From: an uncultured Prochlorococcus sp. | Lineage (GTDB): Bacteria; Cyanobacteriota; Cyanobacteriia; PCC-6307; Cyanobiaceae | NCBI GenBank assembly: GCA_902606505.1 | Contig: CACLGU010000002.1 | Location: 1-64,000 of the forward strand | DNA: 64,000 bases | Reading direction: 5' to 3' | Shown: one piece after another, positions 2,505 to 10,552 of the stretch | Position numbering within the stretch: position 1 is the first letter of the stretch | Layout: every line of letters starts with the position of its first letter | Notes under the pieces: model-generated | What the model saw: only the letters and a program-made list of their open reading frames with translations | What the model was told of the DNA's origin: nothing | Databases searched by the model: none | Translations under genes and position numbers: made by a program

Positions 2505-3620
2505 TTAAACTCCTTTAGCTCTGTTTTGGAAAGTGCCAGCGGATCTCTCTAAGAGAACATCATATTTGCGCTTTACCGGTTGTGTCATTTGTGTAATCAT
2601 ATTTTTCTTATATTCTTTCTTCAAGAAAATAACAGGGCTTCCAGTTAAATTCATCCTCAAACCAAAGAAGGTCTCATCTGTTCCAGGAAGTTTTGAATTA
2701 AGCTTGGTCGAAGCCGCTGATATCTCATTAGAAACCCAAGCTTCAAGGCCAACATGTGGTGTGGCTTGCCAACTAATAGAACCTTCTAATCCTGAATTAT
2801 CTTGTGTATGTTTATAGTCCCAGTTAAATCCTCTTACAAAAAACGCAAGTTGCGGATTATTTGGAAGTCTATAACCTAATTCCACATCCCAGCCAGGAAC
2901 AACTCTTTCTTTATATGATGTCCCCTTTACAGTTACATCTTTTTCATCAGTAATAGCCATATAAAAGTTGTTTCTAAATTCAAAATCTTTCCAAAAATAT
3001 TCTCCTCCTAATCCAAGTCTGCTGTGGGCGTCGCTGTAGTCAGTCATTCTATAATCCCAGAAAGCATTAGCTCCAACCATAGATACATCACTAGGACGAT
3101 GTCTTATCCCTAAACCTAAGTTTGTTGTTGAGCCATCGGCGTTCGTTGCAGTTGCAAATCTTGCTTGAGAAAAAGCAAGTGTTTTAAGATCTCCTTCTTC
3201 ATCTTTGGCAAGTTCACCAAGCTTCATCAAACTATTTATTGAGAAACTTGTATCTGATTCAGTCCCACCAGAAATATTTACGGAAGTCTGCGCAAAAAAT
3301 GGGATTTTTTGGATCTGACTATTTGCTGTTGAATTTGCAAAATTAAATCCAGTGTCAACCAATAATTTTTTAACATCATCAGTCATGATGCGCGTATATT
3401 CACTTCCTTCTGCACCATCATTCATTAAAGGTACAAATTTGGTTGAATAATTTGCTCCTTTGATTATGTATTCATCTAATTTGTCTTTTGGCTCATATAT
3501 ATCTTGCTTAGTTTCAACTAGGTCAAATTTGATATCTTCAAATTTGTATTCATTCGCTGAGACAGAGAGAATTGATCCAAAAGCAAGAGAAATTAAAGAT
3601 AAAGATTTAAATAATGACAC
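2505..3620 (-). CDS. Intimin/invasin-type inverse autotransporter beta-barrel protein (type Ve), passenger-less
   Basis: 371-aa ORF (GTG start). NLGLGIRHRP...MVGANAFWDYR...HSRLGLGGEYFWKDFEFRNNFYM...ERVVPGWDVELGYRLPNNPQL resembles intimin barrel signature (LGIGGEYW..., ERPANGFDIRFNGYLPSYPALGG); ends soon after the barrel. Confidence 0.8.
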   Translation of the reverse strand: MSLFKSLSLISLAFGSILSVSANEYKFEDIKFDLVETKQDIYEPKDKLDEYIIKGANYSTKFVPLMNDGAEGSEYTRIMTDDVKKLLVDTGFNFANSTANSQIQKIPFFAQTSVNISGGTESDTSFSINSLMKLGELAKDEEGDLKTLAFSQARFATATNADGSTTNLGLGIRHRPSDVSMVGANAFWDYRMTDYSDAHSRLGLGGEYFWKDFEFRNNFYMAITDEKDVTVKGTSYKERVVPGWDVELGYRLPNNPQLAFFVRGFNWDYKHTQDNSGLEGSISWQATPHVGLEAWVSNEISAASTKLNSKLPGTDETFFGLRMNLTGSPVIFLKKEYKKNMITQMTQPVKRKYDVLLERSAGTFQNRAKGV

Positions 3621-3760: not shown

Positions 3761-3795
3761 ATTTATTATTAGCTGAGACTTACTGCTATAACTGA

Positions 3796-3843
3796 TCGGG
3801 GCGACAGGATTCGAACCTGCGACCTAGTGCTCCCAAAGCACCC
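3796..3843 (-). pseudogene. Partial tRNA-Pro(TGG), 3' part (copy B)
   Basis: tcggggcgacaggattcgaacctgcgacctagtgctcccaaagcaccc identical to the intact copy, then diverges to agtacgcaatttgcg. Confidence 0.85.
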
Positions 3844-5041: not shown

Positions 5042-5118
5042 TGGTCGGGGCGACAGGATTCGAACCTGCGACCTAGTGCTCCCAAAGCACCCGCGCTACC
5101 AAGCTGCGCCACGCCCCG
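5042..5118 (-). tRNA. tRNA-Pro (anticodon TGG), CCA encoded
   Basis: CGGGGCGTGGCGCAGCTTGGTAGCGCGGGTGCTTTGGGAGCACTAGGTCGCAGGTTCGAATCCTGTCGCCCCGACCA folds as a cloverleaf; loop TTTGGGA. Confidence 0.95.
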
Positions 5119-5257
5119 CCTATAAGATCTTAGTTCATAACTGTCATCTATAAAAGGCTAAATTGCTAAATATTTTATAAAAAATCACTTTTGAGGCTAG
5201 TAAATGATTTTTGTCGCTTTTTTGTCGCTAGATAAATAGATGTTTTGTCACTAGAAA

Positions 5258-6220
5258 TTAGTCTTTTGTAGCGACAGAAATCATCTCTGAACTTGATTGA
5301 AACTTTAAAGCGATATTTTCTAATTTCTCTAATCTCGCTAAAAGTTTTTGATTTTGAGAAATTATCTCATCATTTTTAGCTTTTGATAATTTTAATTCTG
5401 CATTTAAATTTTTATTATTTTCCTCAAGAGTTGATAATTTTTTATCAATTATTTTTTTGTCATTAAAACTTATTTGAGTGGGTTTACTTAATTCTCCTAG
5501 TTTGAAAACAAAACCTGCTTTTACAACACCGCTATCCAATGTTCCTCCACCATAAGATTTAGAACCTCCGAACACATAAGATCCTCCAGCATTGATATCA
5601 ACTCTCTCATTAACTTTTGAGGCGCAACCAAAACCAACTGCATATCTGCTGCTGTATGCACCAGTTCCAACACCGCAACTTAACTTAGATTCTTTTGCGG
5701 TTTGAGGCAAAGCAGTTAAAGCTGCTGTTAAAGCAGTTGATCCTGCAACTCCTTCTCCAAGGTTTTTGATATTTGAAGTATTAGTTGAGATATTTGCAGT
5801 ATTGGTTTTTACAGATGTATAGGGATTGGCTGAAATTTTAACTAAATCTAATTCACTTTCACTGTATGAAGAATCCTCAGTTAAGGATCCTACTGACCAT
5901 AAATCTTCACTTATTGAGTAAGTCCATAATCTGCCAGTGGACTCATAAGATGAATTTTCTTCTTTAAAAAATATTTTGCCAAGTGAATTATCCACCCAAC
6001 CGTCTTCTAGTCGTACATTATTATTCAAACTCCTATCAAAAGTTGTAATTACTGATAGTTCATTAGTGTTACCGTTAACAGAGCTTTTAATAATTTCAAT
6101 TAAGGAATTGCTACTATTCCCACCATCGTTATGAAAATAATTTTCATCAGCTTTTGATTTATTTCCAAGAAAAGGAATTGTGAGGATGCCTATGAAAAGG
6201 TAAGAAAAAAGTTTTTTCAT
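5258..6220 (-). CDS. YadA-like trimeric autotransporter anchor protein with C-terminal coiled coil
   Basis: 320 aa; signal peptide; NTANISTNTSNIKNLGEGVAGSTALTAALTALPQTAKESKLSCGVGTGAYSSRYAVGFGCASKVNERVDINAGGSY resembles the YadA C-terminal anchor; followed by a roughly 70-aa heptad-rich tail. Confidence 0.75.
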   Translation of the reverse strand: MKKLFSYLFIGILTIPFLGNKSKADENYFHNDGGNSSNSLIEIIKSSVNGNTNELSVITTFDRSLNNNVRLEDGWVDNSLGKIFFKEENSSYESTGRLWTYSISEDLWSVGSLTEDSSYSESELDLVKISANPYTSVKTNTANISTNTSNIKNLGEGVAGSTALTAALTALPQTAKESKLSCGVGTGAYSSRYAVGFGCASKVNERVDINAGGSYVFGGSKSYGGGTLDSGVVKAGFVFKLGELSKPTQISFNDKKIIDKKLSTLEENNKNLNAELKLSKAKNDEIISQNQKLLARLEKLENIALKFQSSSEMISVATKD

Positions 6221-6414: not shown

Positions 6415-6456
6415 TGCTCCCAAAGCACCCGCGCTACCAAGCTGCGCCACGCCCCG
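6415..6456 (-). pseudogene. Partial tRNA-Pro(TGG), 5' part (copy D)
   Basis: tgctcccaaagcacccgcgctaccaagctgcgccacgccccg equals the 5' half of the intact tRNA-Pro; the 3' half is absent here. Confidence 0.85.
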
Positions 6457-6708
6457 CTCATAAGATCTTAGTTCATAATAGACATCTATAAAAGACCATA
6501 TTGCTAAATATTTTATAAAAAATCACTTTTGAGATTGCAATATTACTTTTATGGCTTTTTTTAAAAGAAAAATCATTGTTTTTACTTTGCCTCACTACAG
6601 ATTTTAGAAAATTAATCTTTTATTTTAATATTTGTCATCCAATAGAAATATCTGAGTATTAAATTCTATGGAGGAACTATTATCAAAATATTATTTGGAT
6701 TTTGTTGG

Positions 6709-8020: not shown

Positions 8021-9151
8021 ATGAAGCTTTTTAAAAGCTTGCTTGTAGCTCCTGCAACATTGGGACTTCTTGCCCCAGTAGCAGCTACAGCAAATGAAGT
8101 TACAATTAGTGACTTCGCCCCTGCAGAACAACTTGCTATTACTAATAGTCGTGTAGACGGTCTAGAAGCAAGACTAAACAACTTTGAAGCTGGTAGTTTC
8201 TCAGAAACAACAACTGCTTCATTCTCAGCTGATTTCGGGATCGGTGCTGTTGATGGAAAAGACGTTACTACTACAGTTACTGATGGAGATGAAGTTCTTC
8301 AGGCTGCTTACGGTTTCCAGATTGACTTGAACACTAGTTTCACTGGAGAAGATTCACTTGATATCTCTCTTGACGCTGGTAATACTGGTGCCGCACTTGG
8401 TGAACTTGACCTTACTGGTGGACAAAACACTGCTGGTGCTGATCTCTTGGCCGTTGATGGTGTTTCATACACTTTCCCACTAGGTTCAGCAACTGCTTTC
8501 GTTGGTGACAATACTGACGGTAGTATGCTATTCACAACAGCTTGTACTTATGGCGGATCTAACACACTAGATGATTGTGCTAACATAACTGCTGGAATCA
8601 CAGGTGGTGGATTATCTATTGGTGCTGCATATGATTTCGATAATGGATTCACAACAGCAGTAGGTGCTCAATTCGTTGAAACTGGTATTGCTACTAAGGG
8701 AAATGCCGATTCTTGGGCAGCAAACCTTGCATACACAACTGATAGCTACGGTGCTTCTATTACTTACGCAATGGTCGAAGTTGGTACTGGTAACGATACA
8801 TTCACAGCATTAAACGGTTATTATTCATTTGATAACGGTTTAAACATCAGTGCTGGTTATGAAATCGGTGATCTTGATGGTCATGTAGCAGCAGCTGACG
8901 AAACAGAAGCATACTTCATTGGAATTAATGGTGAAGTTGGACCAGGAGAACTAGGTGCTGCTGTAGGTACTTACGGAAAAATGACTGAATCCGGTAGTAC
9001 AATGCCTGAACAGCTAATGTATGAAGCATATTATTCATACGCAGTAAATGATGGAATGACAATCAAACCACTTATTTACACTGTTGAAGCTGCTGACGCT
9101 ACTGATAAGGATGAAACTGGAATCATGGTTAAAACATCATTCAGCTTCTAA
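8021..9151 (+). CDS. Outer membrane porin (Som-like), copy 1
   Basis: Start at 8021 gives MKLFKSLLVAPATLGLLAPVAATANE signal peptide; the ORF-track start at 7958 adds an implausible leader. Gly/aromatic beta-barrel pattern ending MVKTSFSF. Confidence 0.85.
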   Translation: MKLFKSLLVAPATLGLLAPVAATANEVTISDFAPAEQLAITNSRVDGLEARLNNFEAGSFSETTTASFSADFGIGAVDGKDVTTTVTDGDEVLQAAYGFQIDLNTSFTGEDSLDISLDAGNTGAALGELDLTGGQNTAGADLLAVDGVSYTFPLGSATAFVGDNTDGSMLFTTACTYGGSNTLDDCANITAGITGGGLSIGAAYDFDNGFTTAVGAQFVETGIATKGNADSWAANLAYTTDSYGASITYAMVEVGTGNDTFTALNGYYSFDNGLNISAGYEIGDLDGHVAAADETEAYFIGINGEVGPGELGAAVGTYGKMTESGSTMPEQLMYEAYYSYAVNDGMTIKPLIYTVEAADATDKDETGIMVKTSFSF

Positions 9152-9194
9152 ATCTAAATCTAAATTTAATTTAGAAATCTTACACACATTAAAA

Positions 9195-9220
9195 GACCTG
9201 CATTTAGCAGGTCTTTTTTT
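9195..9220 (+). terminator. Rho-independent terminator, porin 1
   Basis: GACCTGC-ATTTA-GCAGGTC-TTTTTTT. Confidence 0.9.
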
Positions 9221-9311: not shown

Positions 9312-10484
9312 ATGAAGCTTTTCCAACGTTTGTTGATAGCTCCAGCTGCTTTAGGATTAATATCACCTTTGGCGGCAAATGCTAATGAGGTAAATCTCAA
9401 TGAGATTGAAAATTACTTAAATCCAGAGAGTATTGAATTTGTTAACTCTTTTGATGATAACGATTTAAATAAGACTCCTTTACTCGCAGGAGGCGAAGGA
9501 TTAGTTGATACAGATAGCTATGACGGGGGTTTCTCAGAAACAACAACTGCTTCATTCTCAGCTGATTTCGGGATCGGTGCTGTTGATGGAAAAGACGTTA
9601 CTACTACAGTTACTGATGGAGATGAAGTTCTTCAGGCTGCTTACGGTTTCCAGATTGACTTGAACACTAGTTTCACTGGAGAAGATTCACTTGATATCTC
9701 TCTTGACGCTGGTAATACTGGTGCCGCACTTGGTGAACTTGACCTTACTGGTGGACAAAACACTGCTGGTGCTGATCTCTTGGCCGTTGATGGTGTTTCA
9801 TACACTTTCCCACTAGGTTCAGCAACTGCTTTCGTTGGTGACAATACTGACGGTAGTATGCTATTCACAACAGCTTGTACTTATGGCGGATCTAACACAC
9901 TAGATGATTGTGCTAACATAACTGCTGGAATCACAGGTGGTGGATTATCTATTGGTGCTGCATATGATTTCGATAATGGATTCACAACAGCAGTAGGTGC
10001 TCAATTCGTTGAAACTGGTATTGCTACTAAGGGAAATGCCGATTCTTGGGCAGCAAACCTTGCATACACAACTGATAGCTACGGTGCTTCTATTACTTAC
10101 GCAATGGTCGAAGTTGGTACTGGTAACGATACATTCACAGCATTAAACGGTTATTATTCATTTGATAACGGTTTAAACATCAGTGCTGGTTATGAAATCG
10201 GTGATCTTGATGGTCATGTAGCAGCAGCTGACGAAACAGAAGCATACTTCATTGGAATTAATGGTGAAGTTGGACCAGGAGAACTAGGTGCTGCTGTAGG
10301 TACTTACGGAAAAATGACTGAATCCGGTAGTACAATGCCTGAACAGCTAATGTATGAAGCATATTATTCATACGCAGTAAATGATGGAATGACAATCAAA
10401 CCACTTATTTACACTGTTGAAGCTGCTGACGCTACTGATAAGGATGAAACTGGAATCATGGTTAAAACATCATTCAGCTTCTAA
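9312..10484 (+). CDS. Outer membrane porin (Som-like), copy 2
   Basis: 390 aa; from FSETTTASF... to the stop identical to copy 1; different N-terminal region. Confidence 0.85.
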   Translation: MKLFQRLLIAPAALGLISPLAANANEVNLNEIENYLNPESIEFVNSFDDNDLNKTPLLAGGEGLVDTDSYDGGFSETTTASFSADFGIGAVDGKDVTTTVTDGDEVLQAAYGFQIDLNTSFTGEDSLDISLDAGNTGAALGELDLTGGQNTAGADLLAVDGVSYTFPLGSATAFVGDNTDGSMLFTTACTYGGSNTLDDCANITAGITGGGLSIGAAYDFDNGFTTAVGAQFVETGIATKGNADSWAANLAYTTDSYGASITYAMVEVGTGNDTFTALNGYYSFDNGLNISAGYEIGDLDGHVAAADETEAYFIGINGEVGPGELGAAVGTYGKMTESGSTMPEQLMYEAYYSYAVNDGMTIKPLIYTVEAADATDKDETGIMVKTSFSF

Positions 10485-10527
10485 ATCTAAATCTAAATTT
10501 AATTTAGAAATCTTACACACATTAAAA

Positions 10528-10552
10528 GACCTGCATTTAGCAGGTCTTTTTT
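10528..10552 (+). terminator. Rho-independent terminator, porin 2
   Basis: Identical hairpin to copy 1. Confidence 0.9.

What the first reader, a model, noticed from the sequence alone, without database searches (positions are those of the whole stretch)
5258..6220. YadA-like trimeric anchor with an extra C-terminal coiled coil
In canonical trimeric autotransporters the anchor barrel is the extreme C-terminus. Here the anchor-like region (GVAGSTALTAALTALPQ...AGFVFKLG) is followed by about 70 residues rich in heptad-like K/E/L (KKIIDKKLSTLEENNKNLNAELKLSKAKNDEIISQNQKLLARLEKLENIALKF). This would place a coiled coil in the periplasm or require a reversed topology. The putative passenger is short and has no recognisable head or stalk.
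Basis: partly seen in the sequence, partly recalled or inferred. Interest (0 to 1): 0.7.

Follow-up and report, generated by a model that had tools for sequence, protein, structure and literature searches.

The report
Prochlorococcus surface adhesin with periplasmic coiled-coil tail
This gene of the ocean bacterium Prochlorococcus encodes a real YadA-type trimeric surface protein whose membrane anchor is followed by a conserved helical tail that most likely zips the three subunits together on the inner side of the outer membrane; tails of this kind are already known from a few other bacteria but are little understood.

Summary
The minus-strand ORF 5258-6220 (320 aa) carries a significant YadA anchor (Pfam 37 bits, cut-off 22.7) followed by 78 residues. 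The tail is neither a frameshift nor chance. All 99 distinct complete relatives found in Prochlorococcus have one. A canonical trimeric coiled-coil motif (RhxxhE) is present in 93 of 99, against about 2 in shuffled tails. The barrel-to-motif distance is mostly 32, 39, 46, 53 or 60 residues, that is, it changes by whole heptads: 83 of 93 fall in one phase, and 40 of 50 inferred length changes on a tree are multiples of 7. The tail is under purifying selection (dN/dS about 0.3), and AlphaFold models it as one long helix after a pore helix and four strands. Foldseek's best five PDB matches are the known trimeric autotransporter barrels. Most Synechococcus relatives also have tails; eight anchors from other cyanobacterial families end at the barrel. 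Topology places the tail in the periplasm; no reversed topology is needed. I infer that it registers and clamps the trimer. The architecture is known (Veillonella, Fusobacteria), so this is a new, well-documented member of a known kind. The gene sits alone in a 1.34-kb unit at a tRNA-Pro integration site.

The parts
5258..6220 (-). Trimeric autotransporter gene (320 aa, including stop codon)
   Evidence: ORF; Pfam YadA_anchor; 71 of 266 genomes searched in the genus hold a match
6149..6220 (-). Predicted Sec signal peptide, aa 1-24 (MKKLFSYLFIGILTIPFLGNKSKA)
   Evidence: Sequence inspection: KK, hydrophobic core, small residues; no signal-peptide program was run
5813..6148 (-). Short passenger/head, aa 25-136
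   Evidence: BLASTP similarity to paralogue N-termini, E 1e-18 to 1e-6; low-confidence strands in the model
5705..5812 (-). Short stalk with IxxNTxx-type heptads running into the pore helix, aa 137-172
   Evidence: AlphaFold helix aa 141-169; heptads repeated many times in paralogues
5495..5704 (-). YadA-type anchor, four strands, aa 173-242
   Evidence: Pfam; four strands; Foldseek top five are Hia, AtaA and YadA barrels
5261..5494 (-). C-terminal extension, aa 243-320: helix aa 252-309, trimerisation motif RLEKLE aa 296-301, tail QSSSEMISVATKD
5042..5118 (-). Intact tRNA-Pro(TGG) next to the gene
   Evidence: ARAGORN
6415..6561 (-). Displaced 5' half of tRNA-Pro with upstream sequence, 88% identical to 5077-5223; far boundary of the 1338-bp unit that holds the gene

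Best explanation
It is a type Vc (trimeric) autotransporter. After Sec export, three chains form a 12-stranded barrel in the outer membrane, with the N-terminal passenger outside and the pore filled by three helices. The last strand ends on the periplasmic side. From there the three C-terminal tails run into the periplasm and zip into a parallel three-stranded coiled coil nucleated by the distal RLExLE motif. The most likely job is to hold the three subunits in register during barrel assembly and to act as a hydrophilic clamp that resists pulling the anchor out of the membrane, in cis, as the separate trimeric helper proteins SadB and TpgA do for other trimeric autotransporters. Shown by sequence or model: anchor, order of parts, tail helix, heptad periodicity, trimer motif, selection on the tail. 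Inferred from known barrels: periplasmic side and trimer state. Inferred only: registering and clamping.
For: Anchor: Pfam (93 of 94 relatives); Foldseek probability 1.00 to Hia, AtaA and YadA. Tail: all 99 distinct complete relatives have at least 49 aa after the barrel. RhxxhE occurs in 93 of 99 against a mean of 1.75 in shuffles. Barrel-to-motif spacing is mostly 32/39/46/53/60, with 83 of 93 equal to 4 mod 7. On an anchor-only tree, 40 of 50 length changes are multiples of 7. Position d is 89% hydrophobic and position a is 48% Asn upstream of the motif. Tail dN/dS is 0.31 pooled, with dN below dS in all 138 pairs examined. AlphaFold helix aa 252-309, block pLDDT mostly 86-98. No OmpA-type or SLH domain was found in 12 near-complete Prochlorococcus genomes that carry the family, so no TpgA-like OmpA partner or SLH tether was detected.
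Against: No trimer could be modelled, so the oligomeric state of the tail rests on the motif and the trimeric barrel. Asn at position a is also common in dimeric coiled coils. No protein data exist. Four anchors of the same cyanobacterial family end at the barrel, so the tail is not obligatory for this barrel type. The conserved distal end (24-25 aa after the motif in most) could mean a binding role instead of, or besides, clamping.
Confidence: 0.6

Rival explanations
1. Periplasmic tether: the coiled coil carries the conserved C-terminal peptide to peptidoglycan or to an inner-membrane partner, fixing the adhesin to the cell wall.
For: The distal end (motif plus 24-25 aa) is the most constant part of the tail. 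In Veillonella and Streptobacillus the same position holds peptidoglycan-binding SLH or OmpA domains (PMC7549365). Many Synechococcus forms are long, 118-169 aa.
Against: No peptidoglycan-binding domain was found in the tails. Reach varies by four heptads between relatives, which is odd for a fixed-distance tether.
Confidence: 0.25
2. Reversed topology: the C-terminal coiled coil is exported and forms the surface part, as in inverse autotransporters.
For: The passenger is short, and an inverse autotransporter (IAT_beta) gene lies nearby at 2505-3620.
Against: The order signal peptide, pore helix, four strands, tail is that of ordinary trimeric autotransporters plus a tail. Paralogues have long N-terminal passengers with stalk repeats and the same kind of tail. 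The pore would already hold three N-terminal helices.
Confidence: 0.04
3. The tail is an artefact or functionless read-through left by a lost stop codon.
For: Four members of the same cyanobacterial family end at the barrel with an aromatic residue.
Against: Conservation, heptad-sized indels, purifying selection and near-universal presence.
Confidence: 0.01

Closest known systems
Veillonella parvula trimeric autotransporters with a coiled or SLH domain after the YadA anchor (Bechon et al. 2020, PMC7549365)
   Same: YadA anchor not at the extreme C-terminus but followed by a coiled coil; many paralogues, several in clusters; function of the coiled domain unknown
   Different: Different phylum; some Veillonella members carry SLH. 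In Prochlorococcus the tail has a fixed trimer motif and heptad-quantised length. That paper names Negativicutes, Synergistetes and Fusobacteria for the extra domain, and Cyanobacteria only for the anchor
PDB 9gh4/9gh5, 'Cell surface protein'
   Same: The family's sequence profile matches across anchor and coiled coil (E 3e-7; the alignment runs through GFTLKLGK into a helical heptad tail)
   Different: Organism, and whether the tail is resolved in the structure, were not shown by the tool
AtaA with TpgA, and SadA with SadB
   Same: Trimeric autotransporters with a trimeric periplasmic helper; TpgA about doubles the simulated extraction force of the AtaA barrel (PMC13082670)
   Different: The helper is a separate protein there; here it is a tail of the same chain, with no OmpA domain found in 12 near-complete genomes
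YadA, Hia barrels (2lme, 3emo, 2gr7)
   Same: Pore helix and four strands per chain
   Different: The barrel is the extreme C-terminus; no tail

Membership tests
Type Vc trimeric autotransporter (YadA anchor family) | YadA_anchor domain above curated cut-off | tested here: met
   37.2 bits against 22.7; 93 of 94 relatives match
Type Vc trimeric autotransporter (YadA anchor family) | One pore helix plus four strands per chain | tested here: met
   H6-34, E45-54, E57-67, E72-82, E95-104; Foldseek top five are Hia, AtaA, YadA. Model confidence in the strands is moderate (block means 44-70)
Type Vc trimeric autotransporter (YadA anchor family) | Sec signal peptide | tested here: inconclusive
   Looks typical by eye; no program was available
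Type Vc trimeric autotransporter (YadA anchor family) | N-terminal passenger with coiled-coil stalk | tested here: met
   Two IxxNTxx-type heptads here, many in paralogues
Type Vc trimeric autotransporter (YadA anchor family) | Forms a trimer in the outer membrane | not testable with these tools
   Only monomers can be predicted
Trimeric autotransporter with C-terminal periplasmic coiled coil (Veillonella type) | Coiled coil after the anchor | tested here: met
Trimeric autotransporter with SLH or OmpA tail | SLH or OmpA domain after the anchor | tested here: not met
   No such domain in the tail
Inverse autotransporter (intimin/invasin) | N-terminal IAT_beta barrel with C-terminal passenger | tested here: not met
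   Pfam finds YadA_anchor as the only family over its cut-off

The most novel reading that the evidence does not exclude
Prochlorococcus and Synechococcus have built the trimeric periplasmic assembly helper (the SadB/TpgA role) into the adhesin itself as a heptad-quantised C-terminal zipper, and exchange passengers on a near-constant anchor-plus-zipper module, in part as small cassettes at a tRNA-Pro integration site.
Probability: 0.3. Interest if true: 0.6.

Novelty: new member of a known kind. Interest (0 to 1): 0.42.

Why it matters
The role of coiled-coil tails after YadA anchors is an open question (stated as unknown in PMC7549365). This family gives a natural length series in heptad steps, tail-less anchors in related cyanobacteria as controls, and a defined motif to mutate. 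It also shows that streamlined open-ocean cyanobacteria keep a diverse set of trimeric surface proteins.

Tried and rejected
Frameshift or read-through origin: rejected. Reversed topology: rejected on the order of parts. Phage origin: no relative in the phage records or viral contigs. Peptidoglycan-binding domain in the tail: none; other weak Pfam hits to tails are generic coiled-coil models. The preprint most likely to overlap (Dorison et al. 2026, doi 10.64898/2026.01.22.700529, known here only through its citation in PMC13082670) is not held, so whether it already lists cyanobacteria is unknown. The viral fold search was submitted and not collected.

Full report
What is there. The finding lies on the minus strand: ORF 5258-6220, 320 aa. 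Pfam recognises a YadA anchor at aa 172-226 well above its cut-off. The barrel ends at FKLG (aa 242) and 78 residues follow. The closest named relatives are Prochlorococcus, and 71 of the 266 genomes searched in the genus hold a match at E 1e-5 or better. The window genome has a second copy on another contig with a 467-aa product.

The tail is real. I collected 102 distinct ORFs with this anchor from the genus; 99 are complete at the C-terminus, and all 99 carry a tail of 49-105 aa. Counting from the barrel end to the last RhxxhE motif gives 32, 39, 46, 53 or 60 residues in most; 83 of 93 fall in one phase modulo 7. On a tree built from anchor DNA only, 50 length changes are needed and 40 are multiples of 7, against about 7 expected. 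The tree may be disturbed by recombination, so this is strong support rather than an exact test. Aligned on the motif, position d is 89% hydrophobic and position a is often Asn. Anchor and tail both show purifying selection, with pooled dN/dS 0.07 and 0.31. That RhxxhE is a trimerisation motif is established knowledge recalled from memory, not tested here.

Structure. AlphaFold on the full protein with 66 sequences gives a helix at aa 252-309 with block pLDDT mostly 86-98. On aa 136-320 with 94 sequences it gives a pore helix, four strands and a 63-residue C-terminal helix; the strands have only moderate confidence, as expected for one chain of a trimeric barrel. Foldseek ranks Hia, AtaA and YadA barrels first with probability 1.00, although no E-value is below 0.001. 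In those barrels the C-terminus is periplasmic, so the tail should be periplasmic too. A profile search of PDB sequences finds 9gh4 across both anchor and tail (E 3e-7).

Distribution. In a sample of 387 cyanobacterial genomes, eight YadA-anchor proteins outside the window's family end within 3 residues of the barrel. Within the family, outside the genus, all ten credible hits of that sample have tails. In a second sample 30 distinct proteins have tails and four end at a terminal aromatic residue. Tails in several of the other genera, named Synechococcus where a name was available, are 118-169 aa with a linker and two helical-looking segments. No relative was found in the phage records or viral contigs.

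How it may work. The parallel trimeric zipper below the barrel is the simplest reading. Length changes by heptads keep the phase of the distal end but not its reach, which fits a clamp or registering device better than a spacer of fixed span. The distal end itself is constant, which leaves room for a binding partner. SadB and TpgA are separate trimeric helpers for other trimeric autotransporters (PMC6604945, PMC13082670); TpgA binding about doubled the simulated force needed to extract the AtaA barrel (PMC13082670). I found no OmpA-type or SLH domain in 12 near-complete genomes with the family, so a tail in cis is a plausible substitute. This is inference.

Relation to known work. Bechon et al. 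[quoted passage not shown] PMC13082670 cites a 2026 preprint by Dorison et al. for C-terminal periplasmic extensions being widespread; I could not read it. I therefore score this as a new member of a known kind.

Setting. The gene is next to tRNA-Pro(TGG). A 147-bp repeat holding the 5' half of that tRNA bounds it on the far side, 1338 bp away, and a copy of the 3' half lies at about 3795-3843. The copies share the anticodon region, a usual crossover site of tRNA-targeting integrases (general knowledge). The same arrangement, with spacing 1.05-1.48 kb, recurs at several related loci.

Noticed in passing
3795-3843, 5042-5118, 6415-6561: Intact tRNA-Pro(TGG) flanked by a displaced 3' half on one side and a displaced 5' half on the other, sharing the anticodon region: scars of site-specific integration, with the autotransporter gene alone in a 1338-bp unit. 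Several related genomes have the same layout.
   Followed up: partly
8196-9219 and 9529-10552: Two tandem porin-like genes share 1024 identical nucleotides (956 to the stop codon and 68 beyond), while their N-termini differ: recent duplication, gene conversion or an assembly effect.
   Followed up: partly
2505-3620 (-): Inverse autotransporter barrel (IAT_beta, 219 bits) with almost no C-terminal passenger, followed by two secreted-looking ORFs of unknown family (1560-2501, 576-1463).
   Followed up: partly
5260-6220, protein Cys182 and Cys199: Two cysteines are invariant in the anchors of both alignments and sit opposite each other on the first two strands of the model (182+199 = 189+192): a possible disulphide inside the barrel wall, which seems unusual for this family.
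   Followed up: partly
L046, L047: Tandem arrays of four trimeric autotransporter genes each, with different passengers and similar anchor-plus-tail ends.
   Followed up: no
L004/L090: A relative at the same tRNA-Pro site (Prochlorococcus MIT 9107) is broken by two stop codons.
   Followed up: no
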